DNA of 14,183 bases from positions 1 through 14,183 of the forward strand of contig NZ_JAVHLH010000045.1 of the NCBI RefSeq assembly GCF_031082345.1. The letters run 5' to 3'. A program made the position numbers and the translations under genes. The notes below the pieces were generated by a model. That model had not been told where the DNA came from, did not search any database, and was given only the letters and a program-made list of their open reading frames with translations. Positions 1,148-11,922 of the stretch are shown piece by piece. Every line of letters begins with the position of its first letter. The stretch's first letter is position 1. The stretch comes from Brevundimonas sp. GTDB lineage: Bacteria; Pseudomonadota; Alphaproteobacteria; Caulobacterales; Caulobacteraceae.

Positions 1148-1161
1148 TTGCGCTTGCGCAA
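1148..1161. promoter_or_regulatory. Fnr/FixK/NnrR-type box before the DUF454 gene
   Basis: Perfect inverted repeat TTGCG-CTTG-CGCAA (5-bp arms, 4-bp spacer), the architecture of Crp/Fnr-family operators, with the TTGC...GCAA outer bases of FixK/NnrR-type sites. Its centre (1154.5) lies exactly 41.5 bp before the A of the ATG at 1196. It starts three bases after the nnrS stop codon. Binding by a Crp/Fnr protein is inferred from symmetry and from identical arms at the ccoN site. Confidence 0.75.
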
Positions 1162-1195
1162 GGCGGCGCGGATCGGAACATGCGACGCATTCGCC

Positions 1196-1651
1196 ATGAC
1201 CCGCCCTGCTTCCGACTATTGCGATCCGGCGCTGTGTCCCACCGACCTGTGTTGTTACGGGGAGTGCCAGTGCGCCCCTTCCGCGGCTTCCGGCGACCGG
1301 CGGCGGCTGATGCTGCAGGCGCTGGGACTGGCGGCGGCGGCCTTGGCGGTGGCGGGGGTGGCCCTGCCGGTGCTGCCCACGACGCCGTTCGTCCTTCTCT
1401 CGGCCTGGGCCTTCGCCCGATCCTCGCCGCGCCTTGAGGCGTGGCTGCGGGACCACGCCCGGCTGGGTCCGCCGCTGGCGGCCTGGGAGCAACGCCGCGC
1501 CATCCCGCGGGGCGCCAAGGCGGTCGCGGTGGTGAGCCTCCCCCTCAGCGGGCTGCTGGTTCATGCGGCGGGAGCCGGTCTCGCCGTCACGGCCGTTGCG
1601 GGACTGGTGCTGGCCTGCGTGGGCGGCTGGATCTTGACCCGACCGTCGTGA
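1196..1651 (+). CDS. DUF454 (YbaN-type) inner-membrane protein with Cys-rich N-terminus
   Basis: A 151-residue protein of the DUF454/YbaN family, small inner-membrane proteins of unknown function. The family core runs from about residue 38 to the end: hydrophobic helix, then VLPTTPFVLLSAWAFARSSP (the family signature), then RLEAWLRDH and AIPRGAKA, then two C-terminal helices. Ahead of it is an unusual hydrophilic segment with Cys at 9, 14, 19, 20, 24 and 26. I chose ATG 1196 because a Fnr-type box lies just before it at exactly -41.5, although there is no Shine-Dalgarno sequence. The alternative is ATG 1145, which overlaps the nnrS stop (TGATG) and would place the box inside the coding sequence. 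The decarboxylase gene follows after 29 bp, so the two probably form an operon. Role unknown; the context suggests an anaerobic or NO-related membrane function. Confidence 0.85.
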   Translation: MTRPASDYCDPALCPTDLCCYGECQCAPSAASGDRRRLMLQALGLAAAALAVAGVALPVLPTTPFVLLSAWAFARSSPRLEAWLRDHARLGPPLAAWEQRRAIPRGAKAVAVVSLPLSGLLVHAAGAGLAVTAVAGLVLACVGGWILTRPS

Positions 1652-1680
1652 ACACGAGCCGACAAACCTCCGGAGATTCC

Positions 1681-3450
1681 ATGAGCCTGTCCCCCGCCGC
1701 TGTGGTCGCCGGCGCCTATTTTCCCGGCCCGCGCTCGGAAAACGAGACCTGGGTGCGCGGCGAGTTCCAGGCTGTGCTGGATCAATGGTTCGACTGGCGC
1801 AAGAGCCTGTTCGCCGACGACCCCCGGCTGGTGGGGCCGGCGGACCGGCTGTCGCCCGGGCGGCTGGAGCGCCGGGAAATCCTGTCCCGGGAGCTGGCCG
1901 AACTCTGCGAGGCCCTGACCGCGGAAACGCCGACCTACACCCCTCGCTACATCGGTCACATGAAGGCCGAGGTGTCGCTGCCGGCGCTGCTGGGCTGGCT
2001 GGCGGCCATGCTGCACAATCCCAACAACACCTCGCGCGAGGCCAGCAAGGTCGGCACGGTGATCGAGGCCGAGGCCATCGCCATGTTGGCGACCATGGTC
2101 GGCTATGACCCGGCGAGGGCCGAGGGCCATTTCACCTCCGGCGGCACGGTGGCCAATTTCGAGGCGGTCTGGCGGGCTCGCTATCGGCTCGATCACTGGC
2201 TCAGCCTCGGGCTGCACATCGCCGAGAAGACCGGGGAGCCCCTCGACGTCTTCGCATCGGCCCACATGGGCTGGACGCGGTTCCGGGAACTCTGGGCCGA
2301 ACACGGGCTGACCGATGCGGTCCTGCGCCGCTGCAGCGCCGCCATCGGCGTGCCGGCCGACATCTGGCGCCGGATCGGCCGCGCCGCCGGGCGCGACTAT
2401 ATGGGCCCCGTGCTGCTGGTCCCGGGCAACAAACACTATTCCTGGTCGAAGGCCGCCAACCTGTTCGGTCTGGGCGAGGAGTCGCTGTGGGCGGTGGGGC
2501 TCGACGCCGACGGGCGTCTGGACGTCGACGATCTGGAGCGACTGATGCGGCGGGCCGAGACCGAGGATCGGCCGGTGCTGATGGCGGTCGGCGTGGCCGG
2601 CACCACGGAGACGGGCGAGATCGATCCGATCGACGCGCTGCATGATCGGCTGGAGCAGTGGGAGGCCGACCGCGGCCTGCACATCTGGCGGCATGTCGAC
2701 GCGGCCTATGGCGGCTTCCTGTGCGCCATCCTCGGCGGTCCGGACGAAGATGTGCTGTCCCGGGCCAGCGCTTCGGCCCTGCGCGCCATCGGCCGGGCCG
2801 ATTCGGTGACCATCGACCCGCACAAGCTGGGCTATGTGCCCTACGCCTGCGGCGCCTTCCTGACCCGCGACAGGGCGCGCTACGCCGTTTCGGCCTTCGA
2901 CGCCCCCTATCTGGATCGCCCCGAGCTCGGCGACGGCAAATGGTCGTCGACGCTGGAGGGGTCGCGCTCGGCGGCCGGCGCCGCGGCGGTCTGGCTGAGC
3001 GGACGGACCATCGGCTTCGATCCGGCCGGCCTGGGCGCCCTGCTGGCCGAGACGGTGCGGGCGCGCCAGGCGTTCGAGGCGGCTCTGGGCGCCGCCGTGC
3101 CGGAGGTCCGTTTTCTCGAGCCCGCCGACGCCAATATCGTCTGCTTCTCCGTGGCCGCGCCCGGCGAAGCCCTGTCCAGCGCCAACGCCCGCACCTCGGC
3201 CCTGTTCGAGCACATCCACCGGTCGCCGGAGTTTTCCGTTTCGAAGACGACCCTGGGGGCCGACTACGCCGCGGTCATCGCCCGCCACGTCGATGGCTAC
3301 GGCGGCGTCGTCGACGCGCCGGGCATGGTGCTGGTGCGCTGCGTCTTCATGAACCCCTACTGGGCCGCGCCCGAATTCCGGACCGCCCTGTTCCCGGCGT
3401 TCATCGACCTGGTCCGCCGGAGCCTCGATCGACCTCCTGAGGCGGCTTGA
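1681..3450 (+). CDS. Group II PLP-dependent amino-acid decarboxylase
   Basis: A 589-residue cytosolic pyridoxal-phosphate enzyme of the group II decarboxylase family (glutamate, tyrosine, aromatic amino acid and diaminobutyrate decarboxylases). The ATG at 1681 follows a CCGGAG Shine-Dalgarno by a few bases. Visible motifs are TSGGT at 152-156 (phosphate binding), His252 in NKHYSWSKAAN (ring-stacking His), HVDAAYGG at 338-345 (Asp340 pairs with the PLP pyridine nitrogen), and DPHKLGY with the Schiff-base Lys382. All catalytic landmarks are intact. The length is somewhat above the 450-550 typical of the family, with an N-terminal extension of about 90 residues before the YIGHM block. The substrate cannot be assigned from sequence reading alone. 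It lies 29 bp behind the DUF454 gene, suggesting co-transcription from the box at 1148. A decarboxylase here is unexpected, since no transporter or amine-pathway gene accompanies it. Confidence 0.9.
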   Translation: MSLSPAAVVAGAYFPGPRSENETWVRGEFQAVLDQWFDWRKSLFADDPRLVGPADRLSPGRLERREILSRELAELCEALTAETPTYTPRYIGHMKAEVSLPALLGWLAAMLHNPNNTSREASKVGTVIEAEAIAMLATMVGYDPARAEGHFTSGGTVANFEAVWRARYRLDHWLSLGLHIAEKTGEPLDVFASAHMGWTRFRELWAEHGLTDAVLRRCSAAIGVPADIWRRIGRAAGRDYMGPVLLVPGNKHYSWSKAANLFGLGEESLWAVGLDADGRLDVDDLERLMRRAETEDRPVLMAVGVAGTTETGEIDPIDALHDRLEQWEADRGLHIWRHVDAAYGGFLCAILGGPDEDVLSRASASALRAIGRADSVTIDPHKLGYVPYACGAFLTRDRARYAVSAFDAPYLDRPELGDGKWSSTLEGSRSAAGAAAVWLSGRTIGFDPAGLGALLAETVRARQAFEAALGAAVPEVRFLEPADANIVCFSVAAPGEALSSANARTSALFEHIHRSPEFSVSKTTLGADYAAVIARHVDGYGGVVDAPGMVLVRCVFMNPYWAAPEFRTALFPAFIDLVRRSLDRPPEAA

Positions 3451-3468
3451 CCGCTGCAGGCGAACGTC

Positions 3469-11183: not shown

Positions 11184-11572
11184 CCCTTCTCCCCATCATT
11201 CGGGAAGCGCGTCCGGCCGTCATCCTCGTGGACGACGACCCGGCGGTCGCGCACGCCGTGCAGTTCTCGTTCGATCTCGAGGGGCTGGACGTGCGCAGCT
11301 TCAGCGACGCCGAGAGCGTGCTGGCGTCAGGAGACCTGCCGCCCAAGGGCTGTCTGGTGCTCGACTACAACCTGCCGGGCGCAGACGGGCTGGAGCTGCT
11401 GGATCGGCTCCGGGCGAAGGGCGTGAGCATGCCGGCGGTGCTGATCACGACCAATCCGCGCACCCTGCTCAGGGCCCGCGCAGCGATGGCGGGGGTTCCG
11501 ATCATCGAGAAGCCCCTGCTCACGGACGCCCTGCTGACTGCGGTGCGAAGCGCGCTCACCCACGAGGCGTGA
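11180..11572 (+). CDS. Stand-alone receiver-domain protein (FixJ-type receiver, no output domain)
   Basis: A 130-residue single-domain response regulator. The acidic pocket (Asp18-Asp19-Asp20 in LVDDDPAV), phosphoacceptor Asp62 (LVLDYNLPGADGLELL), Thr90/Thr91 (VLITT) and Lys111 (IIEKPL) are all present, so it should be phosphorylatable. There is no DNA-binding domain: the protein ends within a few residues of the last receiver helix. I chose GTG 11180 because it overlaps the regulator stop as GTGA and gives a complete receiver; no other good start exists. The receiver is closest in style to the FixJ family. In Caulobacter the single-domain FixT protein feeds back on the FixL kinase; whether this is a functional counterpart or just a phosphate sink is not known. 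No histidine kinase lies in the window. Confidence 0.87.
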   Translation: MTLLPIIREARPAVILVDDDPAVAHAVQFSFDLEGLDVRSFSDAESVLASGDLPPKGCLVLDYNLPGADGLELLDRLRAKGVSMPAVLITTNPRTLLRARAAMAGVPIIEKPLLTDALLTAVRSALTHEA

Positions 11573-11589
11573 ACGCCGTCGCCCCGGTC

Positions 11590-11859
11590 TCAGGCGCGCG
11601 CTGCGCCGGGTTGATCGAGACGGGGGTCCTGGCGAAGCGCCACGCCCGCGAGGATGACGCCACAGGACGACAACAGGCTCGCCGCAGAGACGACGCACAG
11701 GATGCAATGGCCCGTCACGGGTCCGCACAGATTCGCCGCGGTCGCCATATGTTCGGCGGCGGCGATCCCGATGCCGATCGACGATATCGCCAGCACCGCG
11801 CCGCCGGTGACCAGGCCCGCGCCGAGCGTCTTCGAATCCGGGGTGTTGTCGCCTTGCAT
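11590..11859 (-). CDS. Small two-helix membrane protein with four cysteines, unknown function
   Basis: I do not recognise this family. It is an 89-residue protein with two hydrophobic helices (about 12-35 and 53-75) separated by a short loop carrying EHMATAANLCGPVTGHCILC. Cys45, Cys52, Cys55 and Cys66 with His37, Met38 and His51 could bind a metal or form disulphides. ATG 11859 is preferred over longer in-frame starts (up to 11994) because a CGGAGG Shine-Dalgarno precedes it, and because the upstream extension would cross the operator and the ccoN leader. It is divergent from ccoN with the perfect operator at 11903-11922 between them; the -41.5 rule predicts its transcript begins at about 11871, right before the Shine-Dalgarno. 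Co-regulation with cbb3 oxidase suggests a role in microaerobic respiration, perhaps metal or redox handling. This is inference. Confidence 0.68.
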   Translation of the reverse strand: MQGDNTPDSKTLGAGLVTGGAVLAISSIGIGIAAAEHMATAANLCGPVTGHCILCVVSAASLLSSCGVILAGVALRQDPRLDQPGAARA

Positions 11860-11902
11860 TCGCAGCCTCCGTAGACCGTATGAACATGATTTTCGGACGT
11901 CA

Positions 11903-11922
11903 GCTTTGCGTTGGCGCAAAGC
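11903..11922. promoter_or_regulatory. Perfect 20-bp Fnr/FixK-type operator between the small membrane gene and ccoN
   Basis: Perfect inverted repeat GCTTTGCG-TTGG-CGCAAAGC (8-bp arms, 4-bp spacer), the most symmetric box in the window, containing TTGCG-N4-CGCAA. Its centre (11912.5) is 63.5 bp before the ccoN ATG and about 53 bp before the divergent ATG. Fnr/FixK activation of ccoNOQP is well established in alphaproteobacteria. Confidence 0.85.

What the first reader, a model, noticed from the sequence alone, without database searches (positions are those of the whole stretch)
1148..11922. A recurring TTGYG-N4-CGCAA operator links denitrification, NO repair, DNA precursor and oxidase genes
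Exact copies stand at 1148 (DUF454), 3618 (nirK), 9015 (pseudoazurin) and 11906 (ccoN and the small membrane gene), with a degenerate copy at 8334 (nrdJ and the RIC-like gene). The arms are TTGYG rather than the TTGAT of classical Fnr. On a rough independent-base estimate for such a GC-rich sequence, far fewer than one exact match is expected in 14 kb, and all lie near gene starts. With the centre at -41.5, the predicted transcription starts fall 12-42 nt ahead of most of these ATGs, generally right before the Shine-Dalgarno. This defines a compact local regulon.
Basis: partly seen in the sequence, partly recalled or inferred. Interest (0 to 1): 0.7.

Follow-up and report, generated by a model that had tools for sequence, protein, structure and literature searches.

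The report
Oxygen regulator that reads nitric-oxide-type operators
In a Brevundimonas-like bacterium, a short DNA switch long linked to nitric-oxide control also sits before oxygen-respiration genes, and the local oxygen regulator carries one changed DNA-contact amino acid that may let it read that switch.

Summary
In detail: TTGYG-N4-CGCAA is exact at 1148, 3618, 9015 and 11906, with a one-mismatch copy at 8334; 1000 shuffles of the window gave at most one. The genome holds six exact sites: these four, one before a NO-reductase gene and one before ompW. All six precede plausible targets, though raw counts do not exceed a control.

The motif is the published alphaproteobacterial NnrR box (PMC1274295). 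In Brevundimonas relatives a TTGN8CAA box stands before ccoN (21/21), nrdJ (15/15), nirK (14/14), pseudoazurin (18/19), DUF454 (10/10) and qNor (9/9); eight neighbouring genes have none, four have it in a minority.

Less expected: the second regulator is a FixK whose recognition-helix glutamate is histidine, as in the NnrR-type proteins. With His-FixK the promoter-proximal half of the ccoN box is CGCAA in 22 of 24 genomes; with Glu-FixK it is ATCAA/GTCAA in 19 of 19 boxes. ompW agrees only partly (16 of 27 against 1 of 24), and one genome (G076) contradicts it. I propose FixK was re-coded onto the NnrR operator. This is comparative evidence only, possibly one evolutionary event.

The parts
1148..1161 (.). 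operator box TTGCGCTTGCGCAA before DUF454; predicted start coincides with the ATG
   Evidence: a box before DUF454 in 10 of 10 genomes, at 34 nt in 8 of them, the window included
3618..3631 (+). operator box TTGTGCGCGCGCAA before nirK
   Evidence: a TTGN8CAA box before nirK in 14 of 14 genomes, two of them TTGAGGGGCGTCAA
3653..3658 (+). -10-like CTAGAC of nirK
   Evidence: fixed offset from the box, 11 of 12
8334..8347 (.). one-mismatch operator box shared by nrdJ and the RIC-like gene
   Evidence: box 47-52 nt before nrdJ in 15 of 15 genomes
9015..9028 (+). operator box TTGTGCGACCGCAA before pseudoazurin, inside the 3' end of the RIC-like gene
   Evidence: 18 of 19 genomes
9049..9054 (+). -10-like CTAGAA of pseudoazurin
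   Evidence: 17 of 18 with [CTG]TA at the fixed offset
11906..11919 (.). operator box TTGCGTTGGCGCAA shared by the small membrane gene and ccoN
   Evidence: before ccoN in 21 of 21 genomes
3..1145 (+). NnrS, 5' end outside the window
   Evidence: PF05940 367 bits
1196..1651 (+). DUF454 protein
   Evidence: PF04304 4e-32
3699..4739 (+). nirK, copper nitrite reductase
   Evidence: TIGR02376 343 bits, above its cut-off
6052..8286 (-). nrdJ, B12-dependent ribonucleotide reductase
   Evidence: TIGR02504 578 bits, above its cut-off
8401..9039 (+). RIC/YtfE-like hemerythrin protein
   Evidence: PF01814 3e-15; RIC and YtfE models below their cut-offs
9105..9551 (+). pseudoazurin
   Evidence: TIGR02375 143 bits, above its cut-off
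9637..10374 (-). Reg1, NnrR-type Crp/Fnr regulator, helix STLHTVSR
   Evidence: Crp domains; clade with regulators of nirK loci 100/100; 13 of 131 genus genomes
10407..10446 (+). conserved element upstream of Reg2 (GGTAAAYCCCYTAGGG, then CCCGAATA); candidate FixJ site
   Evidence: alignment of 16 loci; resembles FixJ sites quoted in PMC4999443
10497..11183 (+). Reg2, FixK with His at the recognition position, helix LTIHTVSR
   Evidence: nearest solved chain FixK2 4i2o; FixK side of the tree
11180..11572 (+). single receiver domain, FixT-like by position
   Evidence: PF00072 2e-16
11590..11859 (-). small membrane protein gene
   Evidence: no Pfam hit; box upstream in 7 of 7
11976..13637 (+). 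ccoN, cbb3 oxidase subunit I
   Evidence: TIGR00780 747 bits, above its cut-off
13648..14181 (+). ccoO, cbb3 oxidase subunit II, runs off the window
   Evidence: TIGR00781 297 bits, above its cut-off

Best explanation
The sites are the operators of a small oxygen-and-nitric-oxide regulon read by two Crp/Fnr activators encoded between them. Reg1 is an NnrR-type, presumably NO-responsive, regulator. Reg2 is a FixK, presumably raised by FixLJ at low oxygen, with a FixT-like gene behind it. In this FixK the recognition-helix glutamate has become histidine, the residue the NnrR-type regulators carry there, and its ccoN operator has changed the promoter-proximal half-site from ATCAA to CGCAA. I propose that Reg2 therefore reads NnrR-type boxes, so that low oxygen and NO act through one operator class on nirK, qNor, pseudoazurin, nrdJ and the RIC-like gene, DUF454, ccoN and ompW. 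Dimers bound about 41 bp upstream would contact RNA polymerase (class II activation). Shown by sequence: sites, synteny, conservation, helix residues, half-site covariation, -10 spacing at two promoters. Inferred: which protein binds which box, activation, the signals, and that His causes the change of preference. A weaker, separate proposal: a T arm (TTGT/ACAA) favours Reg1 and two C arms favour Reg2.
For: Placement: all six exact genome sites precede cluster genes, qNor or ompW; C. crescentus ompW is listed as FixK-activated in PMC3751524. Conservation with controls. Identity with the NnrR consensus ctTTGcgnnnncgCAAag: PMC1274295; the window ccoN box with flanks reads ctTTGCGTTGGCGCAAag. Reg1 lies with regulators from nirK loci, 37 rows, 100/100; it occurs in 13 of 131 genus genomes, 12 of them with nirK. 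Reg2: His in 30 of 30 best-matching genus loci and 120 of 120 listed database proteins of 1187, Glu in 26 of 26 loci held from other genera of the family. ccoN half-site covariation. CGCAA before ompW in 16 of 27 His-FixK genomes against 1 of 24 boxed loci in Glu-FixK genomes. The ccoN box is CGCAA in 10 of 12 His-FixK genomes without Reg1. The same genome has a Glu-FixK (LTIETISR) on C360, where two of its three TTGATN4ATCAA sites lie. PMC1274295 reports that residue 181 correlates with motif base A6, by my reading the base after TTG.
Against: G076 contradicts a strict code: one FixK match, with His, yet its ccoN box is TTGCGCCAGGTCAA and its ompW box TTGAGGTGGATCAA. G117's ccoN half is AGCAA. 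Eleven of 27 ompW boxes in His-FixK genomes have ATCAA or GTCAA; the split follows OmpW relatedness (CGCAA in 16 of 16 at 79% identity or more, 0 of 11 at 76% or less, bar a second box in G113) rather than FixK type. B. diazoefficiens FixK2, which has Glu, has consensus TTGA/C-N6-T/GCAA, and a table of PMC9104804 lists hemN2 with TTGCGCGAGCGCAA (row seen, header not), so Glu does not forbid CG arms. All His-FixK rows form one group (94/87, not starred), so the covariation may be a single event, and Fisher's 2.6e-10 ignores relatedness. G108 has a second ccoN with TTGACCCATATCAA. Neither regulator gene has the box upstream in the window lineage. No binding or expression data.
Confidence: 0.64

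Rival explanations
1. FixK tolerance without a switch: FixK proteins accept TTGA or TTGC half-sites, the Glu-to-His change is neutral for specificity, and ccoN drifted to CGCAA by chance or GC pressure in one lineage.
For: FixK2 consensus TTGA/C-N6-T/GCAA (PMC6710368); 6 of 19 ccoN boxes with a Glu-FixK already have a TTGCG distal arm; one clade; G076 has a His-FixK with GTCAA and ATCAA boxes.
Against: No ccoN box with a read Glu-FixK lost its ATCAA/GTCAA half (0 of 19), nor did any of 11 boxes whose FixK was not read; before ompW only 1 of 24 boxed loci had CGCAA; the residue gained is the one NnrR-type proteins carry.
Confidence: 0.24
2. NnrR alone: Reg1 reads every box, and Reg2 acts elsewhere.
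For: NnrR consensus match (PMC1274295); Reg1 found in 12 of 14 nirK genomes.
Against: The ccoN box is kept in 12 His-FixK genomes without a Reg1 match, where Reg2 stands beside hemN, pseudoazurin or neither; pseudoazurin keeps a box in 5 of 6 genomes without Reg1.
Confidence: 0.07
3. Cascade as in Bradyrhizobium: Reg2 drives most promoters directly, Reg1 only the NO reductase and a few others.
For: In B. diazoefficiens FixK2 acts directly on nirK and nap, and NnrR directly on norCBQD (PMC6710368).
Against: No box precedes reg1 in 13 of 13 window-type loci, so Reg2 is not seen to control reg1 through this box; nirK and pseudoazurin share a T-arm box type in Reg1-bearing genomes.
Confidence: 0.25
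4. Chance palindromes in GC-rich DNA.
For: Genome numbers do not exceed the reversed-pattern control.
Against: Shuffles; conservation with blank control genes; all six exact sites lie before plausible targets.
Confidence: 0.01

Closest known systems
NnrR regulon of denitrifying Alphaproteobacteria (PMC1274295)
   Same: Operator ctTTGcgnnnncgCAAag; nir and nor targets; NnrR-type regulator at the locus
   Different: Here the box also precedes ccoN, nrdJ, DUF454, pseudoazurin and ompW, and a FixK stands beside the NnrR-type gene; I did not check that paper's tables for these genes
FixLJ-FixK2-NnrR cascade of Bradyrhizobium diazoefficiens (PMC6710368)
   Same: FixLJ, FixK and NnrR together; nirK, ccoN and OmpW-family genes listed; some TTGCGN4CGCAA boxes (norE, nnrR, hemN2)
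   Different: FixK2 has Glu and the listed ccoN box is TTGATTTCAATCAA; here FixK has His and the ccoN box is TTGCGTTGGCGCAA
FixLJ-FixK-FixT hypoxia system of Caulobacter (PMC3751524, PMC7078487)
   Same: FixK with ccoN and ompW among its activated genes; a FixT-like single receiver downstream
   Different: FixK proteins read from other genera of the family carry Glu and their ccoN boxes have an ATCAA or GTCAA half
nirK-cbb3 region of SAR11 (PMC12816887)
   Same: Crp/Fnr gene, nirK, a ribonucleotide reductase gene and cco genes in one region
   Different: The passages I saw describe no shared operator ('promoter' does not occur in its main text)

Membership tests
NnrR box | TTGcg-N4-cgCAA upstream of nir/nor genes | tested here: met
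   nirK and a NorB-type qNor; consensus
NnrR regulator (Reg1) | groups with NnrR-type regulators of nirK loci | tested here: met
   37-row clade 100/100; no experimentally named NnrR was in the tree, the name rests on nirK synteny and recall
NnrR regulator (Reg1) | Tyr 93 of R. sphaeroides NnrR (PMC8510549) | tested here: inconclusive
   no Tyr is 90% conserved in the 37-row alignment; numbering could not be matched
NnrR regulator (Reg1) | responds to NO | not testable with these tools
   needs experiment
FixK (Reg2) | FNR/FixK group without all four FNR cluster cysteines (definition in PMC2908626) | tested here: met
   FixK2 is the nearest solved chain; three Cys in all 228 residues
FixK (Reg2) | DNA-contact residues conserved, 'no group-specific changes' in 65 proteins (PMC4999443) | tested here: not met
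   His in place of Glu in 30 of 30 best-matching genus loci and 120 of 120 listed database proteins; that the position is a contact rests on recall and
FixK (Reg2) | induced by FixLJ | not testable with these tools
   FixL-like (573 bits, below the model's cut-off) and FixJ-like genes on C51 and a candidate FixJ site only
FixT (receiver gene) | four-cysteine motif of Caulobacter FixT (PMC7078487) | tested here: not met
   one Cys in 130 residues
Class II Crp/Fnr promoter | -10 element at the spacing set by a box at -41.5 | tested here: inconclusive
   met at nirK 11/12 and pseudoazurin 17/18; not seen at ccoN 0/22, nrdJ 0/15, DUF454 0/10, qNor 0/9

The most novel reading that the evidence does not exclude
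One clade of FixK oxygen regulators was re-coded by a Glu-to-His change at the DNA-contact position so that it reads the NnrR operator, and ccoN (and one type of ompW) changed the promoter-proximal half-site with it. An older Glu-FixK stays in the same genome on TTGAT sites, so two FixK codes run side by side. A second letter code in the shared operator, a T arm against two C arms, would sort NO-led from oxygen-led promoters.
Probability: 0.38. Interest if true: 0.72.

Novelty: new variant of a known kind. Interest (0 to 1): 0.55.

Why it matters
Crp/Fnr paralogues with near-identical operators are a standing problem in predicting alphaproteobacterial regulons: PMC2908626 calls the FNR, FixK and DNR targets virtually identical, and PMC4999443 found no group-specific change in the contact residues of FixK/FnrN proteins. 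Here one residue and one half-site appear to move together within one family of bacteria, with both codes kept in one genome. That makes a specificity switch testable with two proteins and two boxes, and would explain how micro-oxic respiration and nitrite/NO reduction came under one operator class.

Tried and rejected
Classical Fnr/FixK operator: rejected for these sites, since TTGATN4ATCAA occurs three times in the genome, none in the window.

Genome-wide enrichment as evidence: rejected, because raw counts do not exceed the control.

The C2 site as chance: I first took it to lie in a coding stretch. On rechecking it lies between the end of a nucleoside hydrolase gene and, 86 nt away, the start of an OmpW-family gene, so it joins the regulon. 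A box before ompW is found in 27 of 27 His-FixK genomes with a match (31 searched) and 24 of 28 Glu-FixK genomes with a match (30 searched).

Autoregulation: no TTGN8CAA within 330 nt of Reg2 in 30 of 30 loci, nor of Reg1 in 13 of 15; the two with a box (G028, G067) are a distant Reg1-like protein.

A strict T-arm/C-arm code: not supported as strict. nrdJ in Reg1 genomes has a T arm in 9, two C arms in 3 and other in 1; qNor has a T arm in 7 and two C arms in 2. Among nirK loci elsewhere both kinds occur. In B. diazoefficiens the T-arm boxes of nirK and cycA are FixK2-activated.

Matching Reg1 to R. sphaeroides NnrR by Tyr 93 led nowhere.

Results that blur one search are kept: PLP decarboxylase 5 of 12, FixL 5 of 27, NnrS 2 of 10 and Reg1 2 of 15 have a box upstream; pseudoazurin of G066 has none; the nirK boxes of G028 and G067 are TTGAGGGGCGTCAA at 38 nt and that of G059 lies at 121 nt. 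nrdJ/RIC and ccoN/small membrane gene share one box each, so their counts are not independent. Distances rest on gene starts inferred from tblastn. 'Without Reg1' means no match at E 1e-40; four of the 12 genomes concerned are only 82-88% complete.

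
Full report
1. The sites. TTGYG-N4-CGCAA is exact at 1148, 3618, 9015 and 11906 and has one mismatch at 8334. Of 1000 dinucleotide shuffles of the window, 972 had no exact site and 28 had one. In the whole genome (2.9 Mb, 411 contigs) there are six distinct exact sites: four here, one on C51 and one on C2. The reversed pattern gives equal strand counts, and with one mismatch the pattern gives 156 strand matches against 264 for the control. 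So number is not the evidence; place is.

2. The neighbourhood. Family searches name NnrS, DUF454, a PLP decarboxylase, nirK, an alginate-export-type porin, nrdJ, a hemerythrin (RIC/YtfE-like) protein, pseudoazurin, two Crp/Fnr regulators, a single receiver, ccoN and ccoO. On C51 the order is a hemA-like fragment (name recalled; only an aminotransferase domain hit), a receiver-LuxR protein (FixJ-like), a FixL-like kinase (below its model's cut-off), alternative oxidase, hemN, the box at 4758, and a NorB-type gene with a cytochrome-c-like domain (qNor, by recall). In four relatives hemN, qNor, NnrS, DUF454 and nirK lie in this order on one contig (G104, G043, G109, G069). C51 ends just after qNor and the window begins inside NnrS, so the two contigs probably adjoin. 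The C2 site (3505-3518) lies between a nucleoside hydrolase gene and an OmpW-family gene, 86 nt before the latter's start; C. crescentus ompW is listed as FixK-activated (PMC3751524 passage), and OmpW-family genes are in the B. diazoefficiens NnrR list (PMC6710368).

3. The organism. The window's nirK is 84% identical to that of a MAG labelled Brevundimonas, and 131 genomes of the same genus were searchable. I treat the genome as Brevundimonas.

4. Conservation. I took 36 regions around Reg2, nirK and their neighbours in relatives, added the window and C51, and asked for TTGN8CAA within 330 nt upstream of each gene. With box: ccoN 21 of 21 (55-63 nt to the ATG), pseudoazurin 18 of 19, nrdJ 15 of 15, nirK 14 of 14, RIC-like 10 of 10, DUF454 10 of 10, qNor 9 of 9, small membrane gene 7 of 7. 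None: porin 0 of 13, Reg2 0 of 30, ccoO 0 of 19, receiver 0 of 27, hemN 0 of 26, AOX 0 of 14, FixJ 0 of 28, hemA 0 of 14. Minority: PLP decarboxylase 5 of 12, FixL 5 of 27, NnrS 2 of 10, Reg1 2 of 15. The density over all loci predicts 0.08 per 330 nt. The four variable arm columns, set against the flanks left and right, agree on average in 94% (64, 70) at ccoN, 80% (59, 69) at nirK, 97% (79, 82) at DUF454, 70% (55, 68) at nrdJ, 65% (58, 51) at pseudoazurin and 67% (76, 78) at qNor, so at qNor the arms vary more than their surroundings.

5. Promoter geometry. At nirK (11 of 12) and pseudoazurin (17 of 18) a [CTG]TA element, mostly CTAGA or CTAAA, begins 34-35 bases after the first base of the box; the Caulobacter -10 is quoted as G/CCTANA in PMC3751524. 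This puts the start about 41 bp from the box centre. The other promoters show no such element: ccoN 0 of 22, nrdJ 0 of 15, DUF454 0 of 10, qNor 0 of 9.

6. Known operator. PMC1274295 gives the alphaproteobacterial NnrR motif as ctTTGcgnnnncgCAAag (passage). PMC6710368 lists norE TTGCGTCGGCGCAA, nnrR TTGCGCTATCGCAA and hemN2 TTGCGCGAGCGCAA in B. diazoefficiens. The motif is thus known.

7. The regulators. Reg1 (9637-10374, minus) has the helix RQDLAEMAGSTLHTVSR; regulators in nirK loci of Hoeflea, Aquamicrobium, Microvirga and others have RQDIAEMTGTTLHTVSR and the like, with Tyr or Phe at the His position in Chloroflexi. The 120-row tree puts Reg1 with them, 37 rows, 100/100 (its bootstrap had not fully settled). 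Reg1 occurs in 13 of 131 genus genomes (E 1e-40) and nirK in 14 (E 1e-30), 12 shared. Reg2 (10497-11183) is nearest to FixK2 among solved structures; the alignment sets its LTIHTVSR against LTLETVSR. His is read in the 30 best-matching genus loci, in G028 besides, and in all 120 listed of 1187 database relatives; the 26 loci held from other genera of the family all have Glu. In the tree the 30 His-FixK rows form one group (94/87) beside 53 Glu rows. All 14 nirK genomes have the His-FixK; since the genes are neighbours this may be simple linkage.

8. Covariation at ccoN. Boxes 45-68 nt before the start were sought in the 60 ccoN loci I held, the best of 65 family and 33 genus genomes with a match. 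His-FixK, 24 genomes: promoter-proximal half CGCAA 22, AGCAA 1 (G117), GTCAA 1 (G076). Glu-FixK read, 20 genomes: ATCAA 16, GTCAA 3, no box 1. FixK not read, 15 genomes: ATCAA 10, GTCAA 1, no box 4. One second ccoN copy (G108, TTGACCCATATCAA) was set aside. The distal half is CG in 6 of the 19 Glu boxes. Fisher gives 2.6e-10, which treats relatives as independent and is too strong. PMC1274295, section 8 read in full, reports that residue 181 correlates with motif base A6, which by my reading is the base after TTG. PMC4999443, section 17 read in full, reports highly conserved contact residues and no group-specific changes in FixK/FnrN proteins (65 proteins, 43 genomes). The genome keeps a Glu-FixK on C360 together with two of its three TTGATN4ATCAA sites.

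9. Covariation at ompW, done as a second test. His-FixK, 27 loci: proximal half CGCAA 16, ATCAA 10, GTCAA 1 (G113, which has a further TTGTTTCACCGCAA). All 16 CGCAA cases are the OmpW proteins at 79% identity or more; the 11 others are at 76% or less, so this may be a different ompW. In G104 that other ompW lies beside the Glu-FixK gene. Glu-FixK, 28 loci: no box 4; of 26 boxes ATCAA 15, GTCAA 5, CTCAA 4, TTCAA 1, CGCAA 1 (G161). Thus CG halves are nearly confined to His-FixK genomes, but His-FixK genomes do not always have them. G076 is the clearest exception: it has one FixK match only, a His one, with GTCAA at ccoN and ATCAA at ompW. G088 and G099, also with one match, have CGCAA at both.

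10. Arms. Every nirK box of Reg1 genomes has a T arm (12 of 12) and no ccoN box has one (0 of 22). Pseudoazurin has a T arm in 13 of 13 genomes with Reg1 and in 0 of 5 boxes without; the five make about three lineages. nrdJ and qNor are mixed. I offer the arm code as a hypothesis only.

11. Input to Reg2. The region before Reg2 holds a block conserved in 16 loci, GGTAAAYCCCYTAGGG followed by CCCGAATA (a few rows depart by a base), similar to the FixJ sites GTAGTTTCCC and TAAGTAATTTCCCTTA quoted in PMC4999443. This fits FixLJ control but was not tested.

12. Literature. Searches for Brevundimonas with nirK and FixK, and with NnrR, found no paper; HTVSR occurred in none of the 10 papers listed of 406 that hold FixK or HTVSR. 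The library holds open-licence papers only, so absence there is weak. PMC1274295, PMC2908626, PMC6710368, PMC9104804, PMC3751524, PMC7078487, PMC12816887, PMC8510549 and PMC4999443 were seen as passages, with only the two sections named above read whole.

13. Verdict. An accurate observation of a known operator class, extended here to a conserved regulon of seven boxes in this genome (five in the window, qNor and ompW) and to a FixK with a changed recognition-helix residue whose ccoN operator changed with it. Everything about binding and signals is inference.

Noticed in passing
L019 (G000:C51) 4758-4771: Fifth exact genome site, TTGTGCTGGCGCAA on the minus strand, between hemN and a qNor-type gene, next to FixLJ-like genes and alternative oxidase.
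   Followed up: yes
L018 (G000:C2) 3505-3518: Sixth exact genome site, 86 nt before an OmpW-family gene; boxes precede ompW in relatives too, in two kinds that follow OmpW relatedness.
   Followed up: partly
window 10407-10446: Strongly conserved non-coding block before Reg2, a candidate FixJ site.
   Followed up: partly
L020 (G000:C360) 223, 11107 and 5200-6063: Two TTGATACGGATCAA boxes on one contig with a Glu-type FixK, suggesting a separate classical FixK regulon in the same genome.
   Followed up: partly
L153 (G076:C141): A His-FixK beside ccoN and ompW whose boxes have GTCAA and ATCAA halves; the one genome that breaks the pattern at both.
   Followed up: no
L193 5616, L195 5197, L194 8741, L191 7469: In four relatives (G043, G069, G109, G114) a further box TTGCGCGCCGACAA stands 44 nt before the PLP decarboxylase; the window lacks it.
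   Followed up: no
window 1681-3450: A PLP-dependent decarboxylase kept between DUF454 and nirK in relatives; no obvious role in denitrification.
   Followed up: no
L183 and L186 (G028, G067) 18.2-19.1 kb: A distant Reg1-like regulator with Tyr at the contact position (TLYTASR) and a box TTGCGCCAGCGCAA directly upstream of it, which suggests autoregulation there.
   Followed up: no
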